A stretch of 58,091 nucleotides of DNA from Cytidiella melzeri (lineage: Eukaryota; Basidiomycota; Agaricomycetes; Polyporales; Irpicaceae). Where the stretch lies: NCBI GenBank assembly GCA_022592445.1, contig JABYQR010000293.1, forward strand, positions 1-58,091, given 5' to 3'. This document shows, piece after piece, positions 25,628 to 52,930 of the stretch (within the stretch, counting starts at the first letter, position 1; each line of letters starts with the position of its first letter). The notes under the pieces were generated by a model. It did no database searches, was not told where the DNA came from, and saw only the letters and a program-made list of their open reading frames with translations. The position numbers were made by a program, and so were the translations under genes.

Positions 25628-26452
25628 ATGCGTGGATTAATTGCTGCCCTCGTCCTTTCGGTCGTTTGTACGGGGCATTTGGGTGAGCACCGCAGTGTAT
25701 TTGTGTAGAATCAGAATGAATCTTACCCACGCGCCTCCCCCCTGCCCCCCTGCAGGTTACGGTTTACCGATGGCAGATGGTTTTGGTGAGGACGAACTGT
25801 TCTACAGGCTTCAGCAACTGGGGTTTCAATGTTACGTGTCATCTCCCCTCTATAATATTATAGAAAAACGCGGGATTCCAGCTCGCGCCAGCTTCAACAT
25901 TATCGATCCTACTTCCGACACCACGAACCTGACGCCCTCTGCTGCTGCTCCCCAAGGTGAGGCAATACGTCGCAGGCCTCGCTGTTGGCTAACTTATGTC
26001 TGAAAACTGAACCGTCAGAGAAGCGCATGGATACCAATCCTCCTATTCCTGCGGAAGGGAAGCCTCTTGCTGCTCTGGAAGGTAAGGCACTAGTATACCG
26101 TAGTCGTCGCTAGCATTGTTTGCCTTTGTCTGAACCTTTTTTTGTCAGATAAACGTGGAATCCCAGCTCGCGCCTCTTTCAACATCATTGACCCCACTTC
26201 TGACACCGCGGATTTGCAGCCTGGTGCTGTGATCAAAGGTGGTACGTGATAATTCCACTGGCAGCGGCTGTTCGCTCCCTCATCACTACAACTTCTTTCC
26301 AGACAAACGCGGTATTCCGGCACGGGCAAGTTTCACCATCCTCGATCCTACTTCGGATACCAGTGAACTGAAGGCGGAGACTGCTTGTGAGTCACGGAAA
26401 GCATTACCCACTGTCTTCCACTCGTTGATTGCGGCTGTCAATTTGTTCAGAG
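25628..26452 (+). CDS. Secreted Kex2-repeat peptide precursor A
   Basis: The ATG at 25628 gives a signal peptide (MRGLIAALVLSVVCTGHL), then a short spacer (GYGLPMADGFE) and four modules each opened by KR. Modules 1 and 3 carry the core GIPARASFNIIDPTSDT. Module 4 carries GIPARASFTILDPTSDT. Module 2 is unlike the others (MDTNPPIPAEGKPLAALED). Every module occupies its own exon, and all introns interrupt codons after the first base. The last donor follows ACT GCT T and the next acceptor supplies AG, so splicing makes the stop codon TAG. Predicted products after Kex2 cleavage are peptides of about 20-29 residues. Repeat precursors of this kind give secreted signals or RiPPs in fungi. The family is not one I recognise. 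Confidence 0.8.
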
Positions 26453-27976
26453 AGCTCGATATTCTATATCATGCTGTTCGCGACATCTGACCCGATGTCG
26501 TAAAGAGCTAGAAGAGTCCGAGCAGGCTTAGCTGTTTGTTATACCCGATATCTGTTTTACTAGTGCTATTTGTGTTTGTGAGAAAATATGTGCGGCCATC
26601 TATACTACATGGCTATTGCATGGTCTGAAGGATGATGTCAACTACATGGACTCTTGCAAGCTCTCACAGTTGTCGCAGCATTTTCGTGTGGTTTTATTTC
26701 CCCTTCTGCCTCCGTCACTGTATTCCGTTACCCACTGGTGGCACTTTCAAGGCCCAAGCGACCTGAGCCCCAGAGCGAGACACGCAGCGGTCTGCGTGCT
26801 CTTCCTTGGGCTAGATCCAACGATGTACTTGGCCAGTGTCTATCAGGCGAGAATTGGAGGGCAGCTCATGCATCATACTGTTTCATTTCATTTTGTAACA
26901 CAAGGTTCATTGGGATCACATTCAAGCGCCAAAAATCTACATAAGATTGTCACGGACTCACGGTCACGTTGTGACTAACTTACTTCATTCCTTACCTCGT
27001 CGAGGTTGTTGTGCTGAATTGGCGGTACGAAGTGCTTCTATAAGTGTACGCTAATGAAGGGTAAGACAACGTAGTAAGCTTCACGAGCACCGTGCTGAAA
27101 CCTTCACAAAGTTCACGTAGATGGTCCTCTTTTAGCCACTCACTTCAGTAGGTGCATTGCGCTACCTTCGAAACACGCACCACGACCACGTTTCGTACAC
27201 GTCGCTATCTTCTCGGACGAAACATCTCGGGAGGTTATAAGAGAACCGGCCGACATCGCTCGAAGCAGTGGCGGCTTATGACCTTGTCTGAGCTCAATGG
27301 TGCAAGGAAGCAGTGCCATTTGAGCTCAGTATACCCGCATTGTTCAGCTTAACCATGGCATCGCCCTGAACCGTACCACTCAAGCAGCTCTCTCAGCATG
27401 AAAAGCCAAAGTGGAGAGCCTTGGAACCCCTGAAATGGAGTAATGCACCCATGTCGTGTCCAATGAACTCCGAATCTGCGGTTACCGTTGTTCCTCCAGG
27501 TCCGACAATTAACCTCATTTACCAGCTGCGGATTCGAAATGAGCTGTCCGGAGGTTTATGTTGCGCTTTCGGGTGTATGTACGCGTGGTGAGTACGACAA
27601 AATTATCCAGGAAGTCGTTGCTCATATGGCATCTCTGTAGAAGAAACATGCTACTCGTGTGTTTTCAACACCAAGTTTTACCGTCTGCGTTGTGTTGCTG
27701 CACTCTTCTATGACAAGACTCAGACATAGCGGGCATTATTACCATCAAGAATGACTGGCCTCTGTCGTTCTACTGCTGAATCTTCTGCCAGCCCATGTGG
27801 CTCACACACATGTCTGGCGTGCGAGCGGGCTATGTTGAAGAATGACTCTCTTCCGGCTGCTCACAAGACTATCATGAGCTCGATGGACAGCGCGTGGTCA
27901 CATAGGTGGCCGCTCGGCACTGGGTCTATGTTCATGTTCTCTTCATTCATGTTTGAATACGATGTGTTCTACAAGG
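26453..27976. other. Intergenic, duplication tail then featureless DNA
   Basis: The first ~150 bp still align with DNA downstream of gene B (AGAAGAGTCCGAGCAGGCTTAG here against AGAGTCCGA...GAAGGCTTAG there), marking the 3' limit of the duplication. The rest holds short open frames without exon logic or family resemblance. I see no supported gene. Confidence 0.4.
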
Positions 27977-27983
27977 TATAAAA
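27977..27983 (+). promoter_or_regulatory. TATA box of the PL14 gene
   Basis: TATAAAA lies 48 bp before the chosen ATG at 28025. It supports that start over the in-frame ATG at 27953, which lies upstream of the box. Confidence 0.55.
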
Positions 27984-28024
27984 GCTCACAGCTGGTCCGC
28001 ACTGATAATTCCAAACAACCGAAG

Positions 28025-29052
28025 ATGTCCCTCACTCATCTGTCTACGCTCATAGTTGCACTGTCGGCCACAATACAAGGGGCAATATGCAAAGCGATTC
28101 CAGCCGCATCGATCTCCAGTCCTCTTTTCCCTGTGTCGCCTCAACTCCAGTATTGGACTACCTCTACCTCCATCTCTGGCGCGCTCCCATTGTCCGACGC
28201 CACCTTCCGTCCACACAATGAAATTACTGCCCTCCCTCACCCATACGTCGACGCTCCTGACGGAGAACTATCCATGCAGGCATTCTTCCCCGCCGGCTCG
28301 TACAATTTTCAGAACACTCCGCAAGGGGGATTTTCCTTCTACGCCCCTGGCCCTGCCAGCGTAGATCTCACTACCGCAAAGGAAGCCACATTTGGTTACA
28401 CTGCGTATTTCCCTGCTGGCTTTGATTTCGTTCAAGGTGGCAAGGTCCCTGGACTCTGCAAGTTATCATTTTCGCAGTCTACGACAGACCTTTGACTTTT
28501 TCTCTCGGCCCTTTGTAGATGGCGGGAACAGCGACAGCGAAGCTTTATCCTGCTCAGGCGGCCGGCGTGACGACGGGTGCTGGTCTTCTCGCCTGATGTG
28601 GCGCACGGACGGAGCGGGAGAGCTCTACACCTATCTCCCTCCCGATTTTACCCAAAATCAGGTAGTGTGTAGCATCCCGCCTTTCTCTACCTGCAACGAC
28701 GTGTACGGCGCGTCCATCGGTCGTGGCTCGTTTGATTGGGCGACAGGAGGTCGAACGACTGTTGCTCAGCGCGTTCGCCTGAACGACGACGGACAGGCGA
28801 ACGGAGAGCTTCAATTGTTCGTTGACGGGGAGAGCGTGATCAATGTTGGAGGGCTGGTGATTTCCAATAGTTCATCCGGACGCATTCGCGGCATGCAATT
28901 TCAGACGTTTTTTGGAGGTACGTTGTCGCTATGTTTGGACGGTTTATTGAAGCTGATTTGTCGTGGCAGGCTCAGATCCCTCGTGGGCCACTCCCATAGA
29001 TCAATTCGTGTGGTTCTCAGACTTCTCCGTGGCTATCACAGAATTGTTGTAA
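28025..29052 (+). CDS. Secreted polysaccharide lyase family 14 protein
   Basis: The likely role is eliminative cleavage of uronic-acid polysaccharides (glucuronan or alginate type) outside the cell. The start at 28025 gives a signal peptide (MSLTHLSTLIVALSATIQGA). The catalytic domain has AFFPAGSYNFQNTPQGGFSF, LTTAKEATFGYTAYFPAGFD, GGKVPGLYGGNSD, SSRLMWRTDGAGELYTYLP and SFDWATGGRTTVAQRVRLND. It ends with FFGGSDPSWATPIDQFVWFS. These are PL14 hallmarks. An intron with a GC donor (GCAAGT..TTTGTAG, 28458-28518) and a GT intron (28918-28969) are required and restore the conserved GLYGGNSD and FFGGSDPSW junctions. The gene appears intact, with about 305 residues. Confidence 0.9.
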
Positions 29053-36417: not shown

Positions 36418-39400
36418 ATGTTGCGACGTGCGCCAACGACGGCGGATGGCAAAGTAGTCGATCGATTACAAGAGAGTCATCGGGTCACCAAGCCTTTCAA
36501 GCCCCCAACCATCGCAGCTCAGCGGCAGCAGCCTCAGCGGAAGCGCAAGCGAGTCTCGTACAAGGGTACTGATGCAGGTGGCGACGAATCAGACTCTGAC
36601 GAGGAGACCGGGAGGAAAGCGAAGAAGAAGAAGGCTGGCAAAGACGGTTTCGAGACCCCCAGAGACAATAACATCCAGGAGTTTCCTGTATTCAAAGCAA
36701 AGCCCTTTGATGAGATTGCCCGCAAATTTGCTATTCCCGCCATAAAGGACTCGAATGGAGAGTACGTCCATAAAGTCGCTTCGAATATCGCCCTCGGTAT
36801 ACGGCCCTTAGCGAACCTGATTCCCCGTCCTCTCCACGATCCCATGGAGGACCATGCGATCGTACTATATGACCCGACTATAGACGACAAGGAAACTGAC
36901 GAAGAACGAAAGGAACGAGAGAAGGAGGAGGAGAAAGAACGCTTAGCGAAAGTCGCTGCGGAGAAGTATAATGGTCTCTATAACCCTCACAAGAGTCTCA
37001 AGCATCTTTTGGGCGGTAGCAAAGATAAGAAAACGAATATGGAAAAGGTGGCTGTGGTAATTGACCCAAGACTCTGTAAAGTCTTGCGTCCGCATCAGAT
37101 AGAAGGTGTAAAGGTTGGTCCTGCTACTCTTCCAGCTCAGCTCGAAGCTTGACTGACATCTGGTATAGTTCTTGTACAAATGCACAACTGGGGGAATAGT
37201 AGAGAATCAGTACGGTTGCATCATGGCTGATGGAATGGGCTTGGGTAAAACATTACAATGCATTGCGCTGCTATGGACTTTGTTGAAGCAATCGCCACGA
37301 GCGGGAAAACCCACCATCGAGAAGTGTATCATCGCATGCCCTTCAAGTCTAGTTCAGAATTGGGCGAATGAACTAGGTGAGTCTTTTATTCTGTCTACCT
37401 ATAGCTCTGCTCATGGTGTTGCAGTCAAATGGCTCGGTAAAGATGCGATCGCTGTGCTCGCTGTTGACGGTAAAGGGACTAAGGCTCAGCTGCTCGAAAA
37501 AGTCGCGCGCTGGGTCGCAGCACACGGTCGTAATGTTTCGCAGCCCGGTGAGTAAGGCAAGCGGATGCTCTCGATACGATTACTGACATTGAGAAGTTAT
37601 GATTGTCTCGTACGAGACGTTGAGAACGCTCACAGCCCACCTGGCAAATGCTACTATCGGCCTCTTGTTGTGTGACGAGGGACATCGCCTGAAAAACTCG
37701 GGTATGCCGCCCAGCTAGCTCATTTCATGCCAAAAGTCTCACCCCTGCGCCAGAGAACTTGACTTTCACAGCGCTGAACGGCTTGAACGTGAAACGCCGA
37801 GTGATCTTGTCTGGTACCCCTATACAGGCAAGTGGGGGATCATACTTGAATGCGAAAGCATGACTGATACTGTCCACCCTACAGAACGACCTATCGGAGT
37901 ACTTCTCCTTACTTAATTTTGCAAACCCCGGCTTCCTTGGTACAAAGAATGACTTCAGAAAGAACTTCGAAAACGTAATCATACGTGGACGTGACGCAGA
38001 CGCTTCTGATGCTATGAAAGCGGATAGTGAGAAGAAACTCAAAGAGCTCGGTGGACTGGTTACGAAGTTCATCATCCGACGAACGAACGAGCTACTCTCA
38101 AAATATTGTAAACATATTTCTCCCTGTCTAGGCAATTGACTGACATTGACCAACTGATAGTGCCCGTCAAATATGAGCATGTCGTTTTCTGCCGACCATC
38201 GAATCTCCAGTTGGAATTGTACCGTTTGTTCATCAAGTCGCCCGTGATTCAAGCTCTTCTACGGGGTATAGACTCTCAGCCACTCAAAGCGATCAACATT
38301 TTGAAAAAGCTTTGCAACCATCCCGAGCTGCTCGACCTACCCGGCGACTTGCATGGTTCAGACCACTTGATCCCAGAAGGCTTCAATGGTGCTGGCGCAA
38401 GTGCGCGTGACCGCGGCAGAAACCAGGATGTACACTGCGAATGGAGCGGGAAGTTTACGGTGCTGGAGAGGTAAGAGTTAGGTTACGGTTCTGCGATTTT
38501 GCAGCCATTAACACCGTCCAGGTTCCTACATCGTATCCGAACGGAGACCAACGACAAAATTGTCCTCATCAGCAATTATACACAAACCCTCGATCTGTTC
38601 GAGAGAATGCTACGGTCAAAGAAGTTAGCTGTTTGACATGTCCTTTGTTCGACTTGACTGATATCAAGTATTTTCTTACACTTACAGGTATGGTTATTTC
38701 CGACTTGACGGGACCATGACTACCAACAAGCGTCAGAAGCTTGTCGACCAGTTCAACAATCCTGAGGGAAAAGAGTTCATCTTCTTGCTCAGTAGCAAGG
38801 CCGGCGGGTGCGGCATCAATCTCATTGGCGCGAATCGTCTCATCCTGTTCGATCCTGGTATGTTTTGTGAACCACACCAGATGAAAGCAAAACCGACTGA
38901 CATCGGACAAAGATTGGAACCCTGCAGCTGACCAGCAGGCATTGGCACGAGTTTGGCGTGACGGCCAGAAGAAAGAATGTGAGTGGCTCACTTCCGAATT
39001 GCGTACTCCTCGTTGAGTCTACCTTCGGTATGAAGGTTTCGTCTACCGCTTTATCTCTACTGGCACGATTGAGGAGAAGATCTTTCAGCGACAAGCGAAC
39101 AAGCAAGCTCTGTCTTCTTGCGTCGTGGACGAAAAGGAAGACACGGAGCGCCACTTCTCGCTCGATTCCCTGCGAAAGTTATTCTTGTTCAATGAGAATA
39201 CGCTCTGTGAGACACACGACACCTTCAAGTGCAAGCGGTGCAAGAATGGTCGTCAAATTCTCAAGGCACAGGCGCTACTGTATGGGGATGCTAGCACGTG
39301 AGTCCTCGATGTCCCTGTAGGCCTTGCGATTATGCTGACTGCGTTCCAGGTGGAACCACTTTACCAACGAAGAGCTGAAGAACAACCATGACGACCTCCT

Positions 39401-39458
39401 TCGAGCGGAGGTTGGTCTACCGGAGATTTCTTTTGTGTTCCAGTATATCAGCCATTGA
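36418..39458 (+). CDS. RAD54: DNA repair ATPase RAD54
   Basis: RAD54 is a Swi2/Snf2 motor that helps RAD51 in homologous recombination. The start at 36418 gives [20 protein letters not shown], the next ATG after a non-conserved upstream extension of the same frame. The motor reads [38 protein letters not shown] (motif I), [13 protein letters not shown] (DEGH box), [77 protein letters not shown] and [16 protein letters not shown] zinc-binding [15 protein letters not shown] near the end is typical of RAD54. About nine introns fit. All motifs are present; I remember motif I as ADEMGLGKT in yeast and man, against ADGMGLGKT here. It ends at 39458. Confidence 0.95.
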
Positions 39459-39653
39459 AGTGGCATATATTTGCTTTGCACATTGCTTTCTGCTTTCGCA
39501 TTCGGATTCACCCGCATCTGGAAATCGACCAAGGACTTTGGCATTCACGGATAGTAATACACATTAAATTTCCGTCAATACCCTGTACATTCGCACTTGT
39601 CAGTAACGTAACTGACTGTAAATCCTATCCACTCGTACATACATGTGCAAAGC

Positions 39654-40919
39654 TTACGTGACGATATCGTCCCAAGCACCCCAGTCTCCTCCCACCCGCC
39701 TGACTTTGATTTTCTCCCCAGCGACACCAAAATATGCCGCCTTGCTCCACGTCTGCATTTCTTCCTCGCTGAAAGGCCCAAACACTTGCCCATCGGCTGC
39801 GCCTGGCACGTCCCATTTGTATTCGTACTTGACATCTGCAGAGGGAGGCACCCAGGACTGGTCTACCTTGCCTGACGATCTTACGGCACGAACGAGTTCT
39901 TCGTACGTCTTGTTGTATATCTCGGTGTCGCCGAGGGACATGATTGTAGATGCAAGATGCGTGAGATTGTCTATGTCGGATGGCGCTGTCGGTGCTTTGG
40001 CCGGTGCTTTAGACGTCGTGTCGACCTGCATGGAGTACTCCTCCGCAAGCCGTTTTGTCTTGTTATTTGGCCTGCGACATCATAGGTTATTAGTGTTTAT
40101 AATGTACTCTCAAGAGACCAATACGCACTTTTTCTTTTGCGAGCCGTTCTTCTTTGCCTGCGCACCCATACGCTGCAACGCTTCCAGTACAGTCTCCCCT
40201 TTCTTGAGCAGCGGGAGCATGGCCTTCTCCATCTCCTCCTTCCCTCCCAGTTGCTGCAGCTCCCTCTCCTCTGCCTGCTCCTTCTCCCTCTGTACTCTCT
40301 CCCGCTCCTTGTGCTGTTTCCGCGCCTTCTTCATCTCCTTCTCGTCGAGCCCGTCCATCCATTTATCATGAACAGCATGGGGATCAAAAGTCCGCACATA
40401 CATGCCATCCGCAGAGAACTTTCCTTCCTCCATCTCCTCTCTCATATTGAACGACGACAACTCGAACCCCATGCCCGCCTTCTTCTTCCTCTCAGCGTCG
40501 TCCTCGTCCTCCGGTTCCTCGTCCTCGTCATCCTCCGACCCAGCTTCTCCAAACTCTTGTCCCTCAATATCACCCAACCGTAAGAACTCTTCCTTCTTCT
40601 TCACGCTCTCCTGTTCCTTCTTCTCCTCTTTCTCTCCCATCGCGAACATGTCATCTTCCTCCTCCTCTGCAGCCCCCTCCGCACCGCTTTTTCGACTTAG
40701 CACCACACCTTCACCATCGTCACTAGAGTCCGAATCATACCCTTCCGTCCTAACGCGCCCTTTCCGCTTCGCTTGGGGGTCCTCCAGTTGCGAGTCCACC
40801 TCCTCTGCAAAGTTGGCAGGGTCGTCTTGCGGTTCAGCGAACCGTGTTTTCTTGGATGCGTGTGAGGAGGGCCCTTCTTCAGAAGACCCTGCACGTTTAT
40901 GCGCTGCTCGTGGGGCCAT
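39654..40919 (-). CDS. LIN1: GYF-domain protein, LIN1/CD2BP2 homologue
   Basis: Homologues are U5 snRNP-associated splicing proteins. The start at 40919 gives MAPRAAHKRAGSSEEGPSSH. A charged, mostly disordered body follows, with EGYDSDSSDDGEGVVLSRK, MGFELSSFNMREEMEEGKF and TFDPHAVHDKWMDGLDEKE. One intron (GTGCGTATTGG..GTCGCAG, about 40074-40131) leads to the C-terminal GYF domain: YEYKWDVPGAADGQVFGPFS, EEMQTWSKAAYFG and VRRVGGDWGAWDDIVT. The GPFS..EM..W...G.F core is characteristic. The gene is convergent with RAD54, with 195 bp between the stop codons. Confidence 0.9.
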
Positions 40920-41219
40920 GGTGAGTGTAGTAGTGGGAAAACTTGAGGTCGGTAACGGGCGCGCTTGTGACGATCATGTCAACAACTTGCTTTCAGACCG
41001 CCACTATACTGTATGTGCTACTAGACTCGTCTCTGTACATGGCCGGCGCAGTCCAACAATACAACAGCGCAACCCTCATGAATAGACGGACTAAGTCTTA
41101 GCACGTCAGCTACTACAGCAGTAGCCATTCAAGTTGCAGGTACTAGACGTTCAGCAGCTATTCTCGCCGAGCCAACGTCTCTCTCCACCCACTAGCACGT
41201 TACGCTTAGTTGGGACGCT

Positions 41220-41405
41220 ATGGTGAGTTCTGATGCTGCTTCATTTTTCTGTCTGATAAGAATCGTCTCATTGTAGAATACACACCTCCGAGTGCTGACA
41301 ACAGTCTGCTTTGGCTCAAGGTTTTCTGTAGTTACGCATCAGCCCGTTGCACCAATTCTCGCAAGCTTCCAGCAGTACACCTACGCGGCAGATTTTGCCG
41401 CGTGA
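41220..41405 (+). CDS. Possible 43-residue protein with intron after the ATG
   Basis: ATG at 41220 is followed directly by GTGAGT..ATTGTAG (41223-41277). The spliced frame then runs NTHLRVLTTVCFGSRFSVVT...YAADFAA to a stop at 41405. An intron right after the start codon is common in small fungal ribosomal and mitochondrial genes. The gene would also be divergent from LIN1. However, its 3' end overlaps the antisense GNAT gene and I recognise no family, so this may be chance. Confidence 0.22.
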
Positions 41406-41999
41406 AAATCGCGAGCAAGCAGCCCCAGCCAAATCTTGTCTACAAACTTGCCCTCCTTCCAGACCGCCTCGCGTATACGCCCTTCGTGTTGAAACCCACT
41501 GTCACGATCGGCGAGCAGGGGAGAACACCACACATGAACACGTTCAGCACTTTAGCCAACGAGAGTGACGTTGACAGACTTACAGGTGCTCGTACATGGC
41601 TACAGCGCGTTCGTTCGAACTCCAAACGCACAAGGACAGCCTGTGCAAGGCAAGCCCCGAGAACGTGTATTGGACCAACCAGTCCATGACCTCCGTGCCG
41701 AAGCCCTGACCCCACCATTTCTCGCTAAGGGCGATGCCTATTTCTGCGTTCCTGTCGAGTGGGTTACGCTGTGAGAGCAATGTAAAGCCCATGGGCTCCT
41801 TCGTTTCCTGGTTTTCGACGACGACAAATAAGAGGCAGTGGGTCATGGCATCCAGTCGTGCTTTGTGCCCCGCAAGGTTAGGGAGGATGTAGCCATCGGT
41901 CAGGTTGAGAAGCACGGGGTATTCGTCAAAGAGGCTGAAGAAGAAAGCGTCGTCTGCGGGACGGTAGCCTCTGAGTGTGAGTCGCTTTGTCGCAAACAT
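41381..41999 (-). CDS. GNAT-family N-acetyltransferase (RimJ-like)
   Basis: This enzyme should transfer an acetyl group from acetyl-CoA to an amine on a protein or small molecule. The start at 41999 gives MFATKRLTLRGYRPADDAFF, a typical GNAT beginning. The core has GFTLLSQRNPLDRNAEIGIA, LSEKWWGQGFGTEVMDWLVQ (acetyl-CoA loop WWGQGFGTE) and ALHRLSLCVWSSNERAVAMY. One intron (GTAAGTCTG..TCGTGACAG) then joins EHL to GFQHEGRIREAVWKEGKFVD and KIWLGLLARDF, the usual end of the family. About 175 residues, intact. Confidence 0.88.
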
Positions 42000-42776
42000 G
42001 ACGCTTGTGTCTGTGTGTTTGCAGGGAGGCTTGGCTGCCTGTAAGAGCTGGGGTACAGGGAAAGTATGTGTGTCCCGTCGAATATGTTCCCATTATTACT
42101 TAAACCGTTGTTGTCGGGGATCTAGCTTCTTGTATTTGTCGTGAGTACAGCTTTTCTCTCCGATGTGAATGAGACCGTCAAACTGATAAAATATCAGAAG
42201 AGTGTAAAACAGATGAAATGTGAAGCGGTGGGACTGTAAATGCACAAAGGTTTTGTTGAACAGATCCATGACTTCCAGCTAACTCTAGTTCAGGAATCGT
42301 GGTCCCACGCCCCGCGAAAGCGACAACTACGCACATCTGTTGGGTTATGATCCATCGCATTGACCACGATCGACGCCGCACGCGTTGAGCCCATGCTTAT
42401 GTTAGCCATGCGAGTGATCGCACCTTGCAAGTACTGCACCACAGACATGAGACCGTCACGGTGAGAAATTCCTTGCGCAAATGTGAGAAAAAATCACAGC
42501 TAACAGTCACCCAAGAAGGCCTTTGGAATTGGGAAGTCTACCTCCATCACAGATGCGAGATGCCCCATCCACAAACTTCGTTCTCTCGATCCGAGTTGAT
42601 TCGCCCACCTTCGCATACCAAAAGCGAGAAAAGCCAACTCTTTGCGTGTACCAAAAACGGCGTTTGTTACATTTCGACGTGCAGCGTTGCCCATGATGCC
42701 GGTATACCAACTATTCGTCGAGCTCCTGCGTCGAGCTCTACGCACAGCACCTTACCCAACCACGACCCTATTCACC

Positions 42777-43769
42777 ATGTCGCCTGTCCCATCTCCTCCT
42801 GTCGTCGAAGGCGAAGCCGACTTTCACTATCCCGCAGCGGGTAAACCTCTCAAGACCTGGTACAAGGTCACTGGAGAACTCACTCCGACATCCACACCGC
42901 TCTTCATCCTCCACGGAGGCCCTGGTGTTGGCGCAGAAGCATACAACATCTTCTCCGACCTCACCGTCAAGTACGGCATCCCCATCATCCAATATGACCA
43001 AGTAGGCTGCAAACGCTCGACTCACCTGCGCGAGAAAGCAGACGCTGGGGAAGAGTTTTGGAACGAGGACCTCTTCATCACAGAGCTTCACAACCTCGTA
43101 CGCCACTTCGGGCTCGATGCTGACGGACGTCAGTACGATGTCATAGGGCACTCGTGGGGCGGCATGTTTGGCACGCCTTTCGCAGCCCAAAGACCTCGAG
43201 GATTGAGAAAGTACGTCGTTTGGTCGGCGGCTCCGTCTATTCAGATCTGGGGTGATGCGCAGAGGGAGCTTCGAAAACGGCTGCCACAGGATATCCAGGA
43301 CGTGATGGAGAGGTGTGAGAGGGAGGGAAGGACGGACAGTAAGGAGTACAAGGACGCCGAATGGGAGTTCTACAAACGCTTCATGTGTCGTCTGGATCCG
43401 TTTCCGGCCGACATAATGGACGGCCTCGCAGAGCTGGAGAGAGACCCAACAGTGTATACTTCAATGTATGTGCGTTCATCGTTATTGACAGTACGAGTTT
43501 ATCATTAAAACGATCAACACCACTTTAGGAAGCTCACCAACTGGACTGCAGTCGAGAAGATCTCGACCATTGACGTTCCGGTTCTCCTGCTGAACGGAAA
43601 GTATGACCAAGCGCAGGATAGCTGCTTGCTTCCCTTTTTCGAACGATTGGACAAAGTCAAGTGGGTCCGCTTTGAGGACTCTGCACATATGGCACATTTT
43701 GAAGAAAGAGAGAGGTTCATGCAAGTTCTTGGGGAATTCTTGACGACAGGGAGTAGCCTAAGCACGTAG
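42777..43769 (+). CDS. Proline iminopeptidase-like alpha/beta hydrolase (S33)
   Basis: The family removes N-terminal proline or hydrolyses amino acid amides. The start at 42777 (TTCACCATGTCG) gives MSPVPSPPVVEGEADFHYPA. Key motifs are LFILHGGPGVGAEAYNIFSD (oxyanion HGGPG), IIQYDQVGCKRSTHL, DVIGHSWGGMFGTPFAAQRP (nucleophile Ser in GHSWGG), VLLLNGKYDQA (acid) and FEDSAHMAHFEERERF (catalytic His). An intron at 43466-43528 (GTATGTGCG..CTTTAG) is needed. About 309 residues, all catalytic positions present. No signal peptide, so it is cytosolic. Fungal enzymes of this subfamily are often called L-amino acid amidases. Confidence 0.92.
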
Positions 43770-44399: not shown

Positions 44400-44714
44400 C
44401 TACATCGCCGTGCGCAGATATGATATGGCAGATAGACAACAAATTGTCAGGAAAAGGAAGACGATTGGGATGCATACGGGTGCAGCTCTCATGTCTGGAA
44501 CTCTGGTGAGTGTCTGAACTCTGCGTATATTCTCTCTTGACGATGTTGTTCACAAGCACTAGTAAACTAGTAGAAATCGATTGCCGTTACAGGAACGCGA
44601 GGGGCTCTCAGACTTTCAAGACATGTCTTTCAGTATTTGAGACACATGAGACAAGGACAACGCTGTGGCTTCATGGAAGACCCCGGCAATTCTGTGAGCA
44701 CTGAGCTGCTTACA
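44400..44714 (+). repeat. Upstream block of the peptide-precursor duplication (copy B)
   Basis: This block aligns with 24740-25060 upstream of gene A (GGTGCAGCTCTCATGTCTGG, TTCACAAGCACTAGTA, GTTACAGGAACGCGAG, CCCCGGCAATTCTGTGAGCA). The alignment to A stops at the left end of a 2.9 kb element and resumes after it near 47630, so the block was once contiguous with the promoter of gene B. Confidence 0.65.
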
Positions 44715-44717
44715 ATT

Positions 44718-47626
44718 AAAAGATAGTATTATTACAGATGATCATGCAGAGAAGAATAATAGTTACCAAAAAGGAAATCCCCAGCGAAGAAAAATGTTTT
44801 GGGTTGAGACGGCAACAAGAATAGATAGAAATGTGAGACAGTCAGGCACATCAGGCACACGAGGTAGAAAAGACAGGGATGGCGCAAGGGCTACGACAGG
44901 ATAGGGACAGGAAATGTGGGAGAAGGGGCTGGATGGGCAAGGGTGAAATAGGCATAGAAAGAGCAAGAGAAGGGGAGAGGAGGAGGGGGAGGGGGGGTGG
45001 GGAGTAGTACTTTACTGATTAACTGTTGACGTTGACTGTTGAAAGATCAAACACGCCGATCACCGCATAGATAAAGGTGCTACTCCAGTATGCAAAGGGT
45101 GTGAGCACCTGTTCATTTTCAAAGTCTATGTCAATTTGCTGTGCTTACCAGGTAAGGATGCCACTTATTTCTTGAGGCATGAACTTCGAGTTCTCAGTAG
45201 CAATTTACATAAACAAACAAATCGTGAATTCAACGCTCATAGTACAATACAAAAGCCATGTTATCCGGAGACCCCTTCCCAGTCACTTTCACCTCTAGGT
45301 GTACCACCGACGGAACATGCCAGATGGTCTGATTTGTTCGTTCTGAAGAGGTGTTAGCCATCAATACGCAATCTTTGTATAATAGATTAGCACATACAGT
45401 GTGCACACCATGGTACTGAACATAACATGGTCAGAATCCCCATACATGTAGTCGCTTGAACTGACATGGACATACCTCCTCAATGCTGTTCACCTGAAGT
45501 TGATGTGACACGGAGACAAGGCTCAACGTGACAAACAGGGACACGAAGTGGATGACGACGAAGTGGTGGTGGTAGGCGTGAAGCTCAATACTCTCACCAG
45601 CTATAAACCTTATACAGATGTCTAGCCCAGTAAAGACCAAGTTAGTATTCTGTCTACCAGCTATGTAGTACAGAGGGGTTTGCTTACCTAGCCCAGTAAA
45701 GACCAAGAGGTCGAGATGGGGGGCTAGGAGCGTACATGCAGCAGTATATATAGACTTCAGGGACCTGCGCACAGACCATGTTGAGGGCAGGCTTTGCAAG
45801 AAGCCGTGTGAACGAAGAACAAAAGAACTACCTAAAGGAGAACAATAGCTATTGTCTAGTCCTTGCCAAGAACTCTACACGTGAGAGAATCTATCTAAAA
45901 GGAGACCAACTATTGTATTCCATTCCCACACCTGTGAGAACATCCTTCCATAAAGAGAACAATAAGGAAAGAACAAAAGGAGTCCATGTGGATGGTATCT
46001 ATGACGTCAAACCCTAGCTATGGGCTGAGCCATGTGTCTGTAGCCATGTGGTCTTACTTAAGCTAAGTCACATGCCAGTGTGACGTAGTAGCAAGTAATG
46101 TGACCGTGTGGAGCGTCTAAGCCACGTGATACGGGCACTTAATAGACGTGAAAAGGGAGTTTGTGCAGAGAAGGTTGCAACTGAGCTGCAGCCCGGAGTT
46201 TTACAGATAAAAACAAGAGATAAATTGCGAAAATTAAGGGCTAGTCAGGCCATCCATGACATGATGAGCCTTCATGACAGGCTTGACCTGCGCCATCAAG
46301 GCTCGGAGCAGCTGTCTGGCATCCTCCTGGGCAGCTGCATCTCAGACTGGCAGAGGGACGATGAAGTTGACGTATGGATTGGGGTTGGCCTCCCGTTCAT
46401 TGAGCCTGTGGTGCACCATCTAGATGGAGATGGACATCGGTAAGGATGTATGCAGCTTGTGACGGAACTCACCTCAGAGTCTGTCCAATCCAACTTATGC
46501 AGCTGGGCAACACAGTTGCACAGGTTTACACAGCAGCTCTGGCGACACAGTCGCACAAGATGCGGGAGCAATTGGACACCACAGGCAGTCCCAGAACAAC
46601 ACAGGTGTCTACGACAACTGAGATAGCAAAAGCAGGAGTGAAACCAGCAGTGAGGGTGAGGCCGAGAGCAACAGCAAGGGCGAAGGTGCGAAAGGGAGAG
46701 GGCAAGGACAAGAAACGCTGAGGGCGAGGACATGGAAGGGAGAGGGCGAGAGAAAAGGCGAAAGCGAGAGTGAGAGCAGTCAAGGGCAAGGGCAACAATG
46801 AGGGCAAGGGCAACGACAAGGGAGAGGGCAAGGGCAACAACGAGGGCAACAAGGGAGAGGGCAACAAGGGAGAGGGAGAGGGTGAGGGTGAGGGTGAGGG
46901 CAAGGGCAAGAGGGCAACAAGGGCAACAAGGGCAAGAGGGCAACAAGGGCAAGGGCAAGGGCAACAACAGGCAAGGGCAAGAGGGCAACAACAGGCAAGG
47001 GCAAGAGGGCAACGAGGGCAAGGGCAAGGGCAACAACAAGGGCGAGGGTGAGGGCAACGACAACTCACTGTTGTAACCAATGATGACAGACACATCTGCA
47101 GTTGGATTGAGTGAGACAGCTTAAGTGTTGTGTAACTCTGCAGCCGCTCGTTCTCGCACCTTCCCACAGACATGTTGTACGGAGAAAGGGAGATGAGAAA
47201 GATGACTGACGCAGCTTACCGTTCAAGTGGGTGCAACTGGGGCTCAGCTGCTTGGCTAGGTAAAGCGTGGCAAGGGCTGAAGATGAGAAGGCAACATACC
47301 TGCGGTCCAAAACCTGCACAATCCTATCCCAATCCTACCCCACATGACCTCCTTTGCGTCCGGTCAGCGAACGAGTGTCGTCAGACTGCTCGATGCGGTT
47401 TTTGACTACGCCACAGGCGTGTCGAGTCGGTACCATGCCACAAGCGTGTACTAAACAATGAGTGGCGAGGAGGAGGGCAACAAGGGCGAGGACGAGTTGG
47501 AGGTGATGGCAAGAAGTGCGTTGGAGTGGACACAGCAAGAGGGGAAAAATAGGAAGTGGCAGGGGATTACCATATTGGGCACTAATATTGTTGTGGGCGA
47601 TAATAGTAGTAATAATACTATCTTTT
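44718..47626. mobile_element. 2.9 kb TIR element inserted upstream of gene B
   Basis: AAAAGATAGTATTATTAC at 44718-44735 is the perfect inverse of 47609-47626, and both ends are flanked by ATT. Homology between the upstream regions of genes A and B is interrupted exactly here. Inside I find no recognisable transposase. It holds scattered open frames (for example 46108-46443), a minisatellite, a direct repeat of TAGCCCAGTAAAGACCAAG at about 45625 and 45691, and a homopurine stretch near 44960-45000. It is probably a non-autonomous DNA transposon of unknown superfamily. Confidence 0.72.
46700..47060 (+). repeat. Purine-rich GGGCAA minisatellite
   Basis: The unit AGGGCAA / GGGCAAGGGCAACAACAGGC recurs many times in variable order over about 350 bp. 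The plus strand is nearly free of T here. Long open frames on both strands (Arg/Gly/Gln or Leu/Pro rich) result from the repeat and are not genes. Confidence 0.8.
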
Positions 47627-47908
47627 ATTTGTAATATATAGGAGCACTAGATCCATTTAGTATCCAAATACATAGATACCCACTGAACTCACGCACACAT
47701 ACAGCCCGTATTTTCTATGATTTTCTCTCACCAACAGACATGATCGTCGAGAAAATATCAGACTCGACTGACATGATTGGTGCATGCATGATAGAGAGCT
47801 ACGTCTGTAACACCTCCTCGTTGTGGCACAAATGCAACTTGGGACACCACGAATCACTGAATAAGCCAGAAACATGCTAATAAAACGCTTCCGCAGGCGA
47901 ATCTCACC

Positions 47909-47940
47909 GTACTACTGAAAAGCATATAAACTCAGCACGA
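47909..47940 (+). promoter_or_regulatory. Conserved promoter of precursor gene B
   Basis: AATCTCACCGTACTACTGAA and AGCATATAAACTC, with a TATA box at 47935-47940, lie 85 bp before the ATG. Sequence and spacing match genes A and C. Homology to the gene A upstream DNA continues back to about 47630, where the inserted 2.9 kb element ends. Confidence 0.7.
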
Positions 47941-48019
47941 CTCAATCTAGGGAGGCTGTGGACCACTTCAGCTCCTTTCGTGCTCGTACACAGTAGTCCT
48001 CTCCCAATCTCTTCTAAGC

Positions 48020-48854
48020 ATGCGTGGCTTCTACCTCTCTCTCGTCCTTTCCGTCGTCTGCATGGCGCATCTCGGTAAGCACAGCAGTATACTTGAGTAA
48101 TATCGCAATTAATGTTGCACTCCTGCAGGTTACGGTGAACCTGTGGCAGATGGTTTTGGTAAGAATATAGTTGCAGGCTCCGTCGACTGACTCCTTACTA
48201 CTATGCGTCACTTGACCTTCATGAACGTCATAGAGAAACGCGGAATTCCGGCTCGCGCAAGCGTCAATATTGTCGACCCTACTCCCGACACAGCGATTCT
48301 GACGCCTTCTGCTGCTCTCGAAGGTCAGGCAGCGTGTCGCATCCCCCACTGATGATTCACTTACATCTGAATCGGCGTATCGTATCAGAAAAACGCGACC
48401 TTACCGTCATTCAGAGATGTGCGAGCGACCCTTTCTCAGAAAATGCAGATGTGAAGCCTGCTGCTGCTCCCGCAGGTGAGGCAATATGCTTTTACCATCG
48501 CTATTGTCTGCCTTCATCTAAACCCGGTCTTTTGTTAGACAAACGTGGAATTCCATCCCGTAACTGCTTCAGCATCATTGATCCCACTTCCAACACCGCG
48601 GATTTGCAGCCTGCTGCTGTCCAAGGTATTTCATACGTGCTGATCGCCCTTTCACCAGCTCGAAGCTACCAATGTGACCACAATCAAACGCGCTATTCCG
48701 GCACGAGCAGGCTTCATAATGGTCGAACCTACTTTGGATACCGCTGACCTGAAGGCCGAGATTGTTTGTGAGTGACGGAACATGTTCTTTCCTGTCTTTC
48801 ATCTGTTGATTGCGGCTTTTGACTCGTTTAGAGAAGCACAGTATTCCAGGGTAA
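48020..48854 (+). CDS. Secreted Kex2-repeat peptide precursor B (partly decayed)
   Basis: This is a paralogue of precursor A with the same exon plan. The signal peptide is MRGFYLSLVLSVVCMAHL and the spacer GYGEPVADGFE. Module 1 is KRGIPARASVNIVDPTPDT. Module 2 is divergent (KRDLTVIQRCASDPFSENAD). Module 3 is KRGIPSRNCFSIIDPTSNT. A fourth module (RAIPARAGFIMVEPTLDT) is still readable near 48690, but the acceptor before it has been lost (TTTCCAG in gene A, CACAATC here). It may be skipped, giving a protein that ends EKHSIPG at 48854. If it is included, the next junction again forms T|AG at 48833. Two cysteines not found in gene A appear in modules 2 and 3. Expression status is uncertain. Confidence 0.65.
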
Positions 48855-48912
48855 CGCTGTTTGTGACGGCATGGCCCTTGACCCGACCCCGTGCAGAGCC
48901 TGAAGAGTCCGA

Positions 48913-49339
48913 TCGCACTGGGTAACCACGGCCCAATTTCCGGTGGAAAAACATGAGAAATACGTGAGAAAAAATGGCGATTTTACGGTACCTTTTTGTA
49001 GCAGAAATAGCGCCAAAAAACACTGAATATTTCATCTTGTTTTGCTTGTGAGCGAATGGATGAAAAGTGGCTTTTTTCTCAATGCGTTTTTCCGGCCTTT
49101 TGGTTTCTGTTGAAAATACCATTGAGAAACGCTCCGTTTAGGCATCACCAAAAGGCCGGAAAAACGCATTGAGAAAAAAGCCACTTTTTCATCCATTCGC
49201 TCACAAGAAAAACAAGATGAAATATTCAGTGTTTTTCGGCGCTATTTCTGCTACAAAAAGGTACCGTAAAATCGCCATTTTTTCTCACGTATTTCTCATG
49301 TTTTTCCACCGGAAATTGGGCCGTGGTTACCCAGTGCGA
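48913..49339. mobile_element. 427 bp fold-back element downstream of gene B
   Basis: Two near-perfect arms of about 205 bp (48913-49120 and 49140-49339) face each other around a ~20 bp loop. Ends are TCGCACTGGGTAACCACGGC and its reverse complement. Both arms encode the same spurious peptide in opposite directions, which confirms the mirror. Removing it joins GAGTCCGA to GAAGGCTTAG, matching GAGTCCGAGCAGGCTTAG downstream of gene A. So this is an insertion into the duplicated region. The near-identity of the arms suggests a recent event. Confidence 0.85.
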
Positions 49340-49948: not shown

Positions 49949-50575
49949 CTCTAGCCAAACAGCGAATAAGTGAAAAGAAAGCGAGTAAAGTGTTAGATGA
50001 CTTACAAACAGTGACATCCTCCACCTCAGTGGTGTCAGACGTAGGATTGACGATGTTGCAGGTCGGCCGTCCCGGGATATCGCGTTTGTCTGAAGAGAAA
50101 TTACGATTAGAAGGACAGGTCAACAGAATGCCTGAGAACCGCGACGAATGAGTACGTATTACTCACCTTCAGCAGGCTTCAAGTCCGTAGTGTCAGAAGT
50201 GGGACCAATGATGCTGAAGCAGGGGCGAGATGGAAATGCGCGTTTCTCTGACAAAAGATGGTTGAGATGAAGACAAACAAATGATAACGACGGCTATAAC
50301 ATATTCCCTCACCTTCGGGAGCAGCAGCAGGCACCAGGTTCGCTGAATCGGAAGTAGGAGCGATGATGTTGAAGCCCGGGCGTTAAAAATAGCAGTAAGA
50401 AACCCGTCAAAGCTTGAAAGCAGACCGAATACTCACCAAAGCCATCTGCTACCGGAAAACCATAGCCTGCCAGAGGAAAAGATTGATTTAAAGGTTACGC
50501 AAGTAAGCTGCGGTGCTTACCGAGTTGCGCCGTACAGACGACGGAAAGGACGAGGGCGACGTAAAATCCGAGCAT
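49949..50575 (-). CDS. Secreted Kex2-repeat peptide precursor C
   Basis: This is the third paralogue, tail-to-tail with B. The start at 50575 gives a signal peptide (MLGFYVALVLSVVCTAQL) and spacer GYGFPVADGFE. Two expressed modules follow: KRAFPSRPCFSIIGPTSDT and KRDIPGRPTCNIVNPTSDT. Each is an exon with phase-1 borders and now contains one cysteine. A third module (PGFNIIAPTSDSANL) lies inside the second intron but has lost its acceptor and KR, so it is a dead exon. After VEDVTV the donor follows GTT T and the acceptor gives AG at 49950-49949, making a TAG stop across the junction. The skipped frame beyond would read KRGGHAA. Confidence 0.72.
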
Positions 50576-50663
50576 GTCAGGAGCGATTGGAAAGGGGACA
50601 GCTGTGTACGAGCACGAAAGAGTTGAAGTGGTCCACAACCTTCCTAGATCAAGGGGCACCGAC

Positions 50664-50695
50664 TTTATATGCTTTTCAGTAGTACGGCGAGAATC
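50664..50695 (-). promoter_or_regulatory. Conserved promoter of precursor gene C
   Basis: Read leftward, GATTCTCGCCGTACTACTGA is followed by AGCATATAAAGTC, with TATAAA at 50669-50664, 94 bp before the ATG. This is the same arrangement as in genes A and B. Confidence 0.7.
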
Positions 50696-50775
50696 ACTGA
50701 GCATTTTGCCCACCAGTGAGATGTATTGCCCCGAAGCGGTACATTCGTGAAGTGTGTACATTGGACCAGTTTGAA

Positions 50776-51800
50776 TTAGTGCATACCTAGGTAGATCTGG
50801 GCAAGTGCACAGGGGAGCGATAAGATGCGTGGAAAGTATGTTAGCAAAGACGTAGCCTCGCTGCCAGTGATGATTTGAAAACCGATTACCCCGACGGAAT
50901 AGGTTATGCGTGAAGATTCTGACACTAAATAAGTAAGCCAGGGACCACCGCGATCCATCCCCACCGGTACTGCCAGTGCTAGAGAGACAGATAGACGAGT
51001 GACCATCGTGAGAGCAGACCAATTCCGATGCTCTGTCTGGATGGCATCGCGATGCAAGCATGGAAGGACCACCGGTGCTAATTCAACTTTACGTTCATGC
51101 TGCAATGGAGAGGCTTTGGGGACGGTATTCTCCATCACGCATGCGCTGATACATGTGGGCTTTGCAGTCTTCTCTTCGATGATGTCTGTTGGTGTTATCG
51201 TGTCTTTGACTGTGAGAAACCGAGAACAGAGTGCTATGCTGACTGCGTACCTGAGTTCGAACGTATGTGTGCAGTAGAAGCATGGCCACAATGCTCACAG
51301 GGCTGCCAAGGTATGTGAAGCCACTGCCTTGCAATAGCCCGGCCTCTCACAACGCTCACGAACATCTCTTGCATGGCTTCGTCGAACTTCGTTCCGAGCA
51401 ACACGGAGGCAGTCTTGAGAATCGCCCGCGCCATCCCTCCATGGACATTGCCCGTGCCTGGGCAAACAGACCTCTTGTCTTGGGCGGAGTACCTGTGTCT
51501 GATAACATATTTTGTAGGCTGGTTTGGAGTCTTTGAAGTCCTCCTGTGAAGCCAATCGTCTTCTATCCATAAGTAAGGCTTGTGCCCCTTCGCACAACAT
51601 GGTGGTAAGAAAAGTTCCGACACTCACCGGCGTAATCAGACAGAGCTGCACCCGTATGCATCCCAATCGTCTTCCATTCTGATAAATCGTCGTTTCATCT
51701 GTGCTACATCTGCGTGCGGCGATGTCGAATGAGTACCATAAGTAATAGTAAGTAGGCAGCACAATCATTGACCGGATCCGGCGTATATACATGTACCGGG
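50776..51800 (-). other. Uncharacterised, possibly coding region between C and the UstYa gene
   Basis: Read leftward, several open pieces can be seen: GMARAILKTASVLLGTKFDE (near 51420), GFTYLGSPVSIVAMLLLHTY (near 51310, strongly hydrophobic) and PVGMDRGGPWLTYL (near 50940). Splice-like borders lie between them, but I could not build one continuous frame and recognise no family. The right part (51600-51700) is homologous to the relic blocks upstream of genes A and B. This may be a decayed gene or a divergent membrane protein of the cluster. Confidence 0.3.
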
Positions 51801-52206
51801 GCACCGGCCGAGCACCGGCCGCCGTTTGAAGAATAACTCAAACTACTTACACCCGACTCGAGTGCGTCCATGTAAGTACAGTACTTGCAACTCGACCTCC
51901 AATCGCCCATTAAGATGATATAGAGAGTACAGCATCTCAATCATTTACAGCTCAGCTACAACCTTCCAAAGCCTTGGTTCTCGTGGGACTGACAATTGTA
52001 ACCGACTCTTCCAATGGTCTTAGTTCGTCAATGCCGGGGTTTTTCTTGGACTCTGTAAGCCTTCTCGTCGTTATTACTGACAGCAAACAACCCAGATATC
52101 GACTGTCAACAGCGTACAGTGGTAAACAATCTCATCCTAACAATCGAAATGCAATTTAATGCATGGTGAATGTCGAAACCTTGACCTTTATCTAACGCTC
52201 GTGCGT

Positions 52207-52930
52207 TTACATGGGTGCTTTGTGCTGCTCAACAAACCTCCGCACTTGCGTCCAATCCCGACACCTATGCAAGGTCCCCATGCTAGTAGCCAAGTACTTG
52301 CCTTGGGCCCCTGGCGATTCGACCTCTACGGTGTGGATGAGCGTGGTATCCGCCGCGCACAACACCATCTCTCGCATGTAGCTCAGACAATGGTTCATGT
52401 GGTGGTCGAATCCTGTTCCGTTCCCAGGGAATGCAAGCGCATGAGCCTTGGCGGCAACGTACGAGTGACGAAAGACGTCGAGACAGTGCAACTGGTGGTA
52501 CATCCCGACTGCGAAGACGTTTGGACTCCATCCCGAGCTGGAGCTCTTTCTTTCGGACTCGGTGGGGACTGGGCCGAGTGTCACGAAGCCGGACTCGCCT
52601 CCAGGGAAGAGAGACTTCCAGTCCTCGTCAGAGTACAGTCCGTAGACTTCGTCGTCCAGCCACTCAACTTCCATCGCGGTCTCTTGGACGTGGATGGGAA
52701 GTGCATTGTGGTAGTCGTCGTTCCTGTACGCTGTGCCGATGTCAATCTCAGAGGGTAAAGTGCCTACAAGGTGACGCATACTGACTGTGGGCTGCCAGCT
52801 CGGGGTGAAGAATTATCTGCATGCGTTGCAACATCTGCAGCTTTGTGATGAGCTCGAGTGCTTGGAAGCAAGAGAAGATGACGAGCACGAAGGCTCCCCA
52901 TCGAAGTGCGCGAGCAGAAGTAAAGTCCAT
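52207..52930 (-). CDS. UstYa-like (DUF3328) protein
   Basis: UstYa-family proteins are membrane-anchored oxidases that cyclise or chlorinate fungal ribosomal peptides (ustiloxins, cyclochlorotine). The start at 52930 gives MDFTSARALRWGAFVLVIFS and a membrane span. The body reads TAYRNDDYHNALPIHVQ, WLDDEVYGLYSDEDWKSLFP, GFVTLGPVP, MYHQLHCLDVFRHSY and HHMNHCLSYMREMVLCAADT. Two HxxHC motifs (HQLHC, HMNHC) followed by CAADTTL define the family. Between HPELAAHSQ and SEIDIGTAY the frame shifts by one base near 52780-52790, with only an 18-22 nt GT..AG stretch available. This is either a frameshift, a missed exon or a very small intron. It is the nearest enzyme gene to precursor C. Confidence 0.8.

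What the first reader, a model, noticed from the sequence alone, without database searches (positions are those of the whole stretch)
25628..52930. Undescribed family of Kex2-processed repeat precursors beside a UstYa-like gene: candidate basidiomycete RiPP locus
Seen: three paralogous secreted precursors (A 25628-26452, B 48020-48854, C 49949-50575) with signal peptides and modules that start with KR and carry a core of the form GIPARASFNIIDPTSDT. A DUF3328 protein with HQLHC and HMNHC motifs lies 1.6 kb from C. Known: dikaritins (ustiloxin, phomopsin, asperipin) come from Kex2-cleaved repeat precursors modified by UstYa proteins. Inference: this is a related system in a basidiomycete with a new core. 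The cores lack Tyr, unlike known dikaritins, so the chemistry, if any, must differ. The alternative is an unmodified secreted signal or effector peptide.
Basis: partly seen in the sequence, partly recalled or inferred. Interest (0 to 1): 0.92.

Follow-up and report, generated by a model that had tools for sequence, protein, structure and literature searches.

The report
Repeat peptide precursors beside UstYa oxidase
A basidiomycete fungus carries five related genes whose products are predicted to be cut into short secreted peptides, and at three places in its genome such a gene sits within 5 kb of an oxidase-family gene that would likely modify the peptides, a pairing that resembles known fungal toxin pathways but with peptides that contain no tyrosine.

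Summary
A, B and C are real, and the genome (Cytidiella melzeri, Polyporales) holds two more paralogues: D on contig C727 and a diverged single-module E on C271. Each KR-led peptide has its own phase-1 exon. The peptide is under purifying selection: modules 3-7 of D differ at 33-93% of synonymous but only 4-13% of nonsynonymous sites. Of eight UstYa (DUF3328) matches found in 49.7 Mb, three lie within 5 kb of a precursor. These three blocks (window, C727, C271) also hold a proline-iminopeptidase-like hydrolase, a small one-helix membrane protein and a multi-pass membrane protein. A fourth UstYa1 locus (C335) has only the small membrane protein. The blocks are related by duplication, so they are not independent, but gene order differs and linkage persisted. 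UstYa modification is plausible and untested. Basidiomycete repeat precursors near DUF3328 genes are in print as a class (103 of 1680), so this is a new variant, not a new kind. Missing tyrosine does not exclude cyclisation: victorin is closed through Phe and Leu. B and C look partly decayed. No transcript or peptide evidence was available.

The parts
25628..26452 (+). Precursor A: exons 25628-25682, 25756-25785, 25864-25956, 26019-26081, 26149-26241, 26303-26386, 26451-26452; 139 aa, four KR-led modules, stop codon split T|AG over the last intron
   Evidence: splice model with GT/AG at every junction, all phase 1; no annotated protein for it among the hits
48020..48854 (+). Precursor B: exons 48020-48074, 48129-48158, 48234-48323, 48389-48475, 48539-48625, then a last module at 48686 without its own AG acceptor in the usual place
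   Evidence: annotated as BC835DRAFT_1310163 (P0001) with the same first five exons
49949..50575 (-). Precursor C: exons 50575-50521, 50466-50437, 50247-50167, 50089-50006, 49950-49949; two changed modules; the first module has lost KR and acceptor
   Evidence: one search has the fourth exon one base short by a range slip; annotated inside a fused model BC835DRAFT_1523573 (P0002) that ends at the same residue but keeps a short exon (ANLVPAAAPE) from the remnant first module, which my model leaves out
25448..25627 (+). Upstream region of A with a TATAAA box and flanks shared with B, C and D
   Evidence: alignment of the upstream regions of A-E, 71% mean column identity; E is the least alike
47840..48019 (+). 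Upstream region of B, same shared elements
50576..50755 (-). Upstream region of C, same shared elements
52207..52930 (-). UstYa1 (DUF3328/PF11807), exons 52930-52786 and 52730-52207, 222 aa, one N-terminal membrane helix, HQLHC and HMNHC
   Evidence: dN/dS 0.14-0.21 over the 6 pairs of the four copies
53166..53588 (+). Mp: 119-aa one-helix membrane protein, divergent from UstYa1 across 235 bp; exons 53166-53472 and 53536-53588. No Pfam family; not demonstrably related to UstYa
   Evidence: annotated with a longer start as BC835DRAFT_1421533 (P0031, 136 aa)
54344..55550 (+). Extent of a predicted multi-pass (about seven-helix) membrane protein gene; copies stand in the C727 and C271 blocks
   Evidence: six helices over threshold in two long ORFs, not a spliced model; no Pfam family over cut-off
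42600..43739 (+). Proline-iminopeptidase-like alpha/beta hydrolase; copies stand in the C727 and C271 blocks
   Evidence: PDB 3wmr, E 3.4e-46
41214..42202 (-). GNAT-type acetyltransferase, also in the C727 block (77% nt); not found in the C271 stretch held

Best explanation
Five paralogous genes of Cytidiella melzeri encode precursors of one to seven KR-led peptide modules, which Kex2 would likely cut into peptides of 19-29 residues that the neighbouring membrane-anchored UstYa protein is predicted to oxidise before secretion. Shown: the genes, one exon per peptide, the modules, purifying selection on the peptide sequence, and a UstYa gene within 5 kb of a precursor at each of the three loci that hold one. 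Inferred from family knowledge: entry into the ER by the hydrophobic leader, cleavage after KR by Kex2, trimming of KR by Kex1, and action of UstYa1 from the ER/Golgi membrane on the peptide. My guess for the site (about 0.2 on its own) is a hydroxylation or crosslink at Phe8, in A and most of D perhaps with the Ile residues at 10-11 (AFNIID), by analogy with victorin. The linked iminopeptidase-like hydrolase and the linked multi-pass membrane protein would be, respectively, a trimming enzyme and a transporter or receptor; both roles are guesses from linkage.
For: Precursor modules occur at only two loci by core search (16 of 16 candidates), plus one diverged member E. Each of the three loci has UstYa1, at 1.6, 1.5 and 4.4 kb from the nearest precursor, while only 8 UstYa matches were found in 49.7 Mb; a random site has a 0.16% chance of one within 5 kb. 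Modules 3-7 of D: pS 0.33-0.93 but pN 0.04-0.13 over 10 pairs; A (modules 1, 3, 4) against D (3-7) w = 0.105. UstYa1 copies w 0.14-0.21; both HxxHC motifs invariant in 12 aligned homologues. Shared upstream elements in A-D. A Kex2-type P-domain match exists (C112). Blocks differ in gene order but keep the hydrolase, UstYa1, Mp, multi-pass gene and a precursor.
Against: The three blocks are duplicates of each other, so the linkage is not three independent events. A lies 26 kb from UstYa1. C335 carries UstYa1 and Mp with no precursor found in the 20 kb held, so UstYa1 can be kept without one. No Tyr or Trp in the peptides of A and D, while 65.6% of repeats in KEPs near DUF3328 genes have Tyr (PMC7329392). 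The Ile pair of the guessed crosslink is missing in E and in D modules 1 and 2, and Phe8 in 4 of 18 modules. One D junction reads ER instead of KR, so D modules 3 and 4 may stay joined as 57 residues. The conserved stretch is about 22 residues, longer than the 8-14-residue repeats of known dikaritins. KEP peptides detected in four agaricomycetes were linear or minimally modified (PMC9769878). No Irpex lacteus protein is among the named UstYa1 hits although Mp has a relative there. No expression or peptide data.
Confidence: 0.5

Rival explanations
1. The precursors give ordinary linear KEP peptides, secreted and unmodified, acting as signals or on other organisms; UstYa1 acts on something else or merely travelled with the block when it was duplicated.
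For: KEP peptides detected in four agaricomycetes were linear or minimally modified (PMC9769878); only 6.1% of basidiomycete KEPs in one survey have a DUF3328 neighbour; no Tyr, Trp or His-His in A and D modules; C335 keeps UstYa1 and Mp without a precursor found; A has no adjacent UstYa.
Against: UstYa1 neighbours a precursor at all three precursor loci although gene order changed; UstYa1 stays under purifying selection; the hydrolase and multi-pass genes accompany the precursor at those three loci and are absent at C335, where no precursor was found. A fourth close copy of the multi-pass gene, on C468, could not be looked at.
Confidence: 0.35
2. The peptides are structural or surface-active, like the Rep1 repellent peptides of Ustilago maydis, rather than signals or metabolites.
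For: Kex2-type repeat anatomy fits (Rep1 is named in PMC6339444 section 15); peptide length 19-29 residues.
Against: Composition is charged and polar (DPTSDT, DLKP), and conservation of a specific 22-residue string suits a ligand or enzyme substrate better; the Rep1 sequence was not compared.
Confidence: 0.08
3. The family is decaying: B and C are pseudogenes, and the locus is a relic.
For: B's last module lacks the usual acceptor, C's first module has lost KR and acceptor, and both differ from D at more nonsynonymous sites than A does (pN 0.196 and 0.213 against 0.123).
Against: A and D keep GT/AG at every modelled junction and open frames, with w about 0.1 between them.
Confidence: 0.05

Closest known systems
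Dikaritins (ustiloxin, phomopsin, asperipin-2a) and victorin, made from KEPs in clusters with UstYa/DUF3328 genes (for victorin the UstYa part is recalled)
   Same: Leader plus KR-bounded repeats; UstYa-family gene within a few kb; victorin is likewise not closed through Tyr (Phe and Leu; PMC9233826 passage)
   Different: Basidiomycete; peptides of 19-29 residues without Tyr; one exon per peptide; no product known; linked iminopeptidase-like hydrolase and multi-pass membrane protein
Basidiomycete KEPs accompanied by DUF3328 genes (103 of 1680 in Umemura 2020, PMC7329392)
   Same: Same kind: secreted repeat precursor and DUF3328 neighbour
   Different: The abundant DUF3328-linked types there carry Tyr, His-His or Trp; A and D have none; that survey works from annotated proteins, and A and D appear unannotated
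Linear KEP peptides of agaricomycetes (Coprinopsis cinerea and others, PMC9769878)
   Same: Kex2-type processing of secreted precursors in Agaricomycetes
   Different: That paper's text has 0 occurrences of DUF3328 or UstY; some of its peptides likely come from Ste13-type trimming, for which no module here has a signature

Membership tests
Kex2-processed repeat protein (KEP) | three or more repeats of at least 8 residues between Kex2 sites | tested here: met
   by count: met by A (three like modules of four), B (three like of four) and D (seven, one led by ER instead of KR); not met by C (two) and E (one)
Kex2-processed repeat protein (KEP) | ER signal peptide | tested here: inconclusive
   hydrophobic core of 2.6-3.07 Kyte-Doolittle over 11 residues in A-E; SignalP was not available
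Kex2-processed repeat protein (KEP) | cleavage by Kex2 shown | not testable with these tools
   one Kex2-type P-domain match found, a lower bound; cleavage inferred
Dikaritin-type RiPP | UstYa/DUF3328 gene beside the precursor gene | tested here: met
   3 of 3 loci that hold precursors, at 1.6, 1.5 and 4.4 kb; gene A itself is 26 kb away
Dikaritin-type RiPP | Tyr in the core, used for the ether crosslink | tested here: not met
   no Tyr in any module peptide of A or D, nor in the 18 module cores listed
Dikaritin-type RiPP | tyrosinase and S41 peptidase in the cluster | not tested
   no scan of the whole cluster for these families was made
Dikaritin-type RiPP | cyclised product | not testable with these tools
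   needs mass spectrometry
UstYa family (UstYa1) | PF11807 match over cut-off and two HxxHC motifs | tested here: met
   71-79 bits against cut-off 25 for the four copies; both motifs invariant in 12 sequences
UstYa family (Mp, 53166-53588) | sequence relation to UstYa | tested here: not met
   no Pfam match up to E 0.1, and profile comparison probability 0.5%
Alpha-pheromone-like KEP | Ste13 signature (X-A or X-P dipeptides after the Kex2 site) | tested here: not met
   0 of 18 modules have A or P at position 2
Basidiomycete CaaX pheromone precursor | C-terminal CaaX box | tested here: not met
   A, C, D and E end in ETA, VTV, GTA and AAA; B's end is uncertain, NCBI's model ends in RTG

The most novel reading that the evidence does not exclude
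The block is a self-contained peptide signalling system: a repeat precursor, an oxidase that gives the Tyr-free peptide a new Phe-based crosslink, a peptidase that trims it, and the linked multi-pass membrane protein as its own receptor, duplicated and diversified so that each block makes and reads a different modified peptide (A-D type against E type).
Probability: 0.12. Interest if true: 0.88.

Novelty: new variant of a known kind. Interest (0 to 1): 0.56.

Why it matters
Whether UstYa enzymes modify Kex2-cut peptides in basidiomycetes, and without Tyr, is open: Umemura (2020) wrote that cyclisation 'might hardly occur in Basidiomycota'. A family with a strongly conserved 22-residue peptide, duplicated UstYa blocks and a natural single-module variant (E) makes that testable by mass spectrometry and gene deletion. 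The exon-per-peptide layout also shows why surveys that start from annotated proteins would miss such genes: A and D have no annotated protein among the hits here, and C is annotated as part of a fused model.

Tried and rejected
Haplotype explanation for C216 and C727 (two nuclei of a dikaryon): rejected, because the neighbouring region 36500-41100 (helicase- and CD2BP2-like genes by recall) has one match in the genome, and identity in the shared block is only about 69-86%, a repeat element apart.

Mp as a truncated UstYa (my own first impression): rejected.

Other UstYa loci: C35, C401 (three genes) and C335 were scanned over about 20-30 kb per locus for KR-led repeats, for module-exon clusters and for the family pattern. 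Nothing of the family was found. One search gave one cluster of two unlike exons in L045, taken as chance. The 78-bp tandem repeat in L046 lies in a plus-strand ORF, while the KR reading is on the minus strand.

AlphaFold model of UstYa1 from 12 sequences: mean pLDDT 53.8, too poor for a fold search, not used. No solved structure matched by sequence up to E 0.1.

Homologues: one protein search with precursor D (2 hits up to E 1, both Cytidiella; only the 7995 candidates sharing most words were scored), one with UstYa1 (27 hits) and one with Mp (7 hits, 4 of them Cytidiella). Whether Cytidiella was among the genomes of the published KEP surveys was not checked beyond the library search.

Rows dropped before the selection estimates: the odd modules A2 and B2, D modules 1 and 2 (computed as their own pair only: pS 0.154, pN 0.019), and E.

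Literature: 'Cytidiella melzeri' has no paper in the library. Searches for UstYa with proline iminopeptidase and UstYa with Irpex lacteus gave 0 papers; Kex2 with intron and exon terms listed 2 papers, on ant peptides and subtilisin-like proteases by title. A search for UstYa, DUF3328 or receptor terms (two of five terms required) gave 2,992 papers; the 12 listed hold neither UstYa nor DUF3328, and the rest were not seen. Searches gave the listings from which papers were chosen. Seen of each paper: PMC7329392 outline, abstract, passages, sections 7, 9 and 13; PMC6339444 outline, abstract, sections 15 and 24; PMC9769878 outline, abstract, passages, section 10; PMC9233826 passages only.
Full report
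What is there. The window is contig C216 of a 49.7-Mb draft genome. Proteins from the same 58,091-base contig are named in NCBI as Cytidiella melzeri, a basidiomycete of the order Polyporales, family Irpicaceae. The three precursor genes of the finding are confirmed at their coordinates. They share an unusual anatomy. A 55-nt exon encodes a hydrophobic leader (MRGLIAALVLSVVCTGHLG in A) and a 30-nt exon encodes YGLPMADGF. Each KR-led module then sits in its own exon of 63-93 nt, and in A, B and D every modelled exon starts and ends in phase 1. In A and D the stop codon is split T|AG over a last intron. The same holds for C and from the end of NCBI's model; the last module exon of C was cut one base short by a range slip. 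NCBI's protein for B has the first five exons of my model; its fused model for C ends at the same residue but keeps a short exon from the remnant first module that mine leaves out.

More members. A core search of the whole genome found modules only at C216 and at a second contig, C727 (16 of 16 candidates scored; DNA search). There stands gene D, 230 aa with seven modules, one of them led by ER instead of KR. While looking at another UstYa locus, C271, I found a leader exon of the same family (tblastn E 2.7e-4). About 150 nt after it comes one KR-led module, VSPAGGCFFKTDAGLDTSDFSAAA; the small exon between them is uncertain. This gene, E, aligns without gaps to the GIPARAAFNIIDPTSDTADLKPAA modules; 3 of 20,000 shuffles of its core score as well. 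Its module had no other match in the genome up to E 10. So the family has five known members, and E shows that the core can change greatly.

Selection. The 10 pairs of modules 3-7 within D differ at 33-93% of synonymous sites but at only 4-13% of nonsynonymous sites. D modules 1 and 2 carry a changed core and are a recent pair (pS 0.154, pN 0.019). A (modules 1, 3, 4) against D (3-7) gives w = 0.105; B (1, 3, 4) and C (2, 3) against D give 0.195 and 0.239; the odd modules A2 and B2 were left out. Most modules are therefore old copies whose peptide sequence has been held. These are simple pairwise estimates on 72-nt stretches with near-saturated dS, so the ratios are rough. B and C look partly decayed: B's last module lacks the usual acceptor, and C's first module has lost its KR and acceptor.

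The neighbourhood. Eight UstYa matches were found in the genome (8 of 8 candidates). Three of them, all called UstYa1 here, lie 1.6 kb (C), 1.5 kb (D) and 4.4 kb (E) from a precursor. A random site has a 0.16% chance of a UstYa within 5 kb. The three loci are related by duplication, so this is not a three-fold independent test. Each also has a small membrane protein (Mp, 109-119 aa in my models) head to head with UstYa1, a predicted multi-pass membrane protein and a proline-iminopeptidase-like hydrolase. A GNAT acetyltransferase gene is shared by C216 and C727; it was not found in the C271 stretch held. Order and orientation differ: in C216 and C727 the precursors lie beyond the 3' end of UstYa1, in C271 beyond the multi-pass gene, and in C727 the Mp-UstYa1-multi-pass unit is inverted relative to the hydrolase. 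A fourth UstYa1-Mp pair, at C335, has no multi-pass gene, no hydrolase and no precursor found in the 20 kb held. A fourth close copy of the multi-pass gene, on C468, could not be looked at. Both UstYa1 (w 0.14-0.21) and Mp (w 0.21-0.34) are constrained over 6 pairs each. Mp is not detectably related to UstYa. Outside Cytidiella, Mp has 3 relatives: one in Irpex lacteus and two unnamed. One of the unnamed lies on a contig of 10,931 bases, the same length and source as the contig of a 63%-identical UstYa1 relative, which suggests that the pair is linked in another fungus. No Irpex protein is among the named UstYa1 hits.

Mechanism. A leader, KR-bounded modules and a Kex2-type match in the genome make Kex2/Kex1 processing the natural reading, though no cleavage was shown. 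UstYa1 keeps one N-terminal helix and both HxxHC motifs, as expected of an enzyme acting in the secretory pathway. The peptides of A and D have no Tyr or Trp, so a dikaritin-type Tyr ether is excluded for them. Victorin, however, is closed between Phe and Leu (PMC9233826 passage). Phe8 is kept in 14 of 18 modules, E included. Ile stands at 10 in 12 of 18 and Ile, Leu or Val at 11 in 13 of 18; E and D modules 1 and 2 keep Phe8 but not this pair. A Phe-Ile crosslink could therefore hold only for part of the family. I give UstYa oxidation of some kind about 0.5, and the Phe8 site about 0.2. The main rival is that the peptides stay linear, as the KEP peptides detected in four agaricomycetes do (PMC9769878).

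Against what is known. Umemura (PMC7329392) found 1680 basidiomycete KEPs, 103 of them near DUF3328 genes, and noted that cyclisation might hardly occur in this phylum. The kind is therefore known. New here are the family itself, the lack of Tyr, Trp or His-His in A and D, the exon-per-peptide layout (for which the one search made gave no precedent), and a duplicated block with a hydrolase, Mp and a multi-pass membrane protein. Both KEP surveys read start from annotated proteins with three or more repeats. A and D appear to have no annotated protein, C is annotated as part of a fused model, and E has one module, so such surveys would likely miss them.

Verdict. The RiPP interpretation is plausible but unproven. 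The finding is a good candidate for testing UstYa chemistry in basidiomycetes, not a new kind of system.

Noticed in passing
window 53166-53588; C727, C271, C335 copies: Small conserved one-helix membrane protein of no known family, head to head with UstYa1 in 4 of 4 copies in this genome, with one relative in Irpex lacteus and two in unnamed sequences.
   Followed up: partly
G000:C401:98320-103994 and 6697-21133: Three further UstYa genes; a distant relative of the multi-pass membrane protein lies between two of them (C401:101598) and another lies 14 kb from the third (C401:20897), so UstYa and this membrane family may be linked more widely.
   Followed up: partly
window 42600-43739 against C271 and C727: The iminopeptidase-like gene of the window is closer to the C271 copy (90% aa over the longest piece) than to the C727 copy (79%), opposite to UstYa1 (69% and 86%); conversion or retention of different copies would explain it.
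   Followed up: no
window 48913-49339: Inverted repeat with 165-nt arms, 96% complementary, 97 nt apart, between B and C: looks like a MITE-type insertion.
   Followed up: no
window 44702-47000: High-copy repeat, mostly 94-99% identical to dozens of places in the genome: probably a transposable element inserted in the block.
   Followed up: no
window 55882-56500: Repeat element with many copies (80-99% identity) next to the multi-pass membrane gene.
   Followed up: no
A module 2 (26019-26081) and B module 2 (48389-48475): In A and B the second module has a quite different core (MDTNPPIPAEGKPLAALE; DLTVIQRCASDPFSENADVKP) while keeping KR and exon phase; it could release a second peptide or be degenerate.
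   Followed up: no
window 9796-11123: Low-complexity glycine- and tryptophan-coding repeats on both strands, picked up by the KR-repeat scan; not related to the precursors.
   Followed up: no
L048 112-785 (C401 about 10.0-10.7 kb): An exact repeat about 670 bases apart gave KR-led pairs in the scan; not examined.
   Followed up: no
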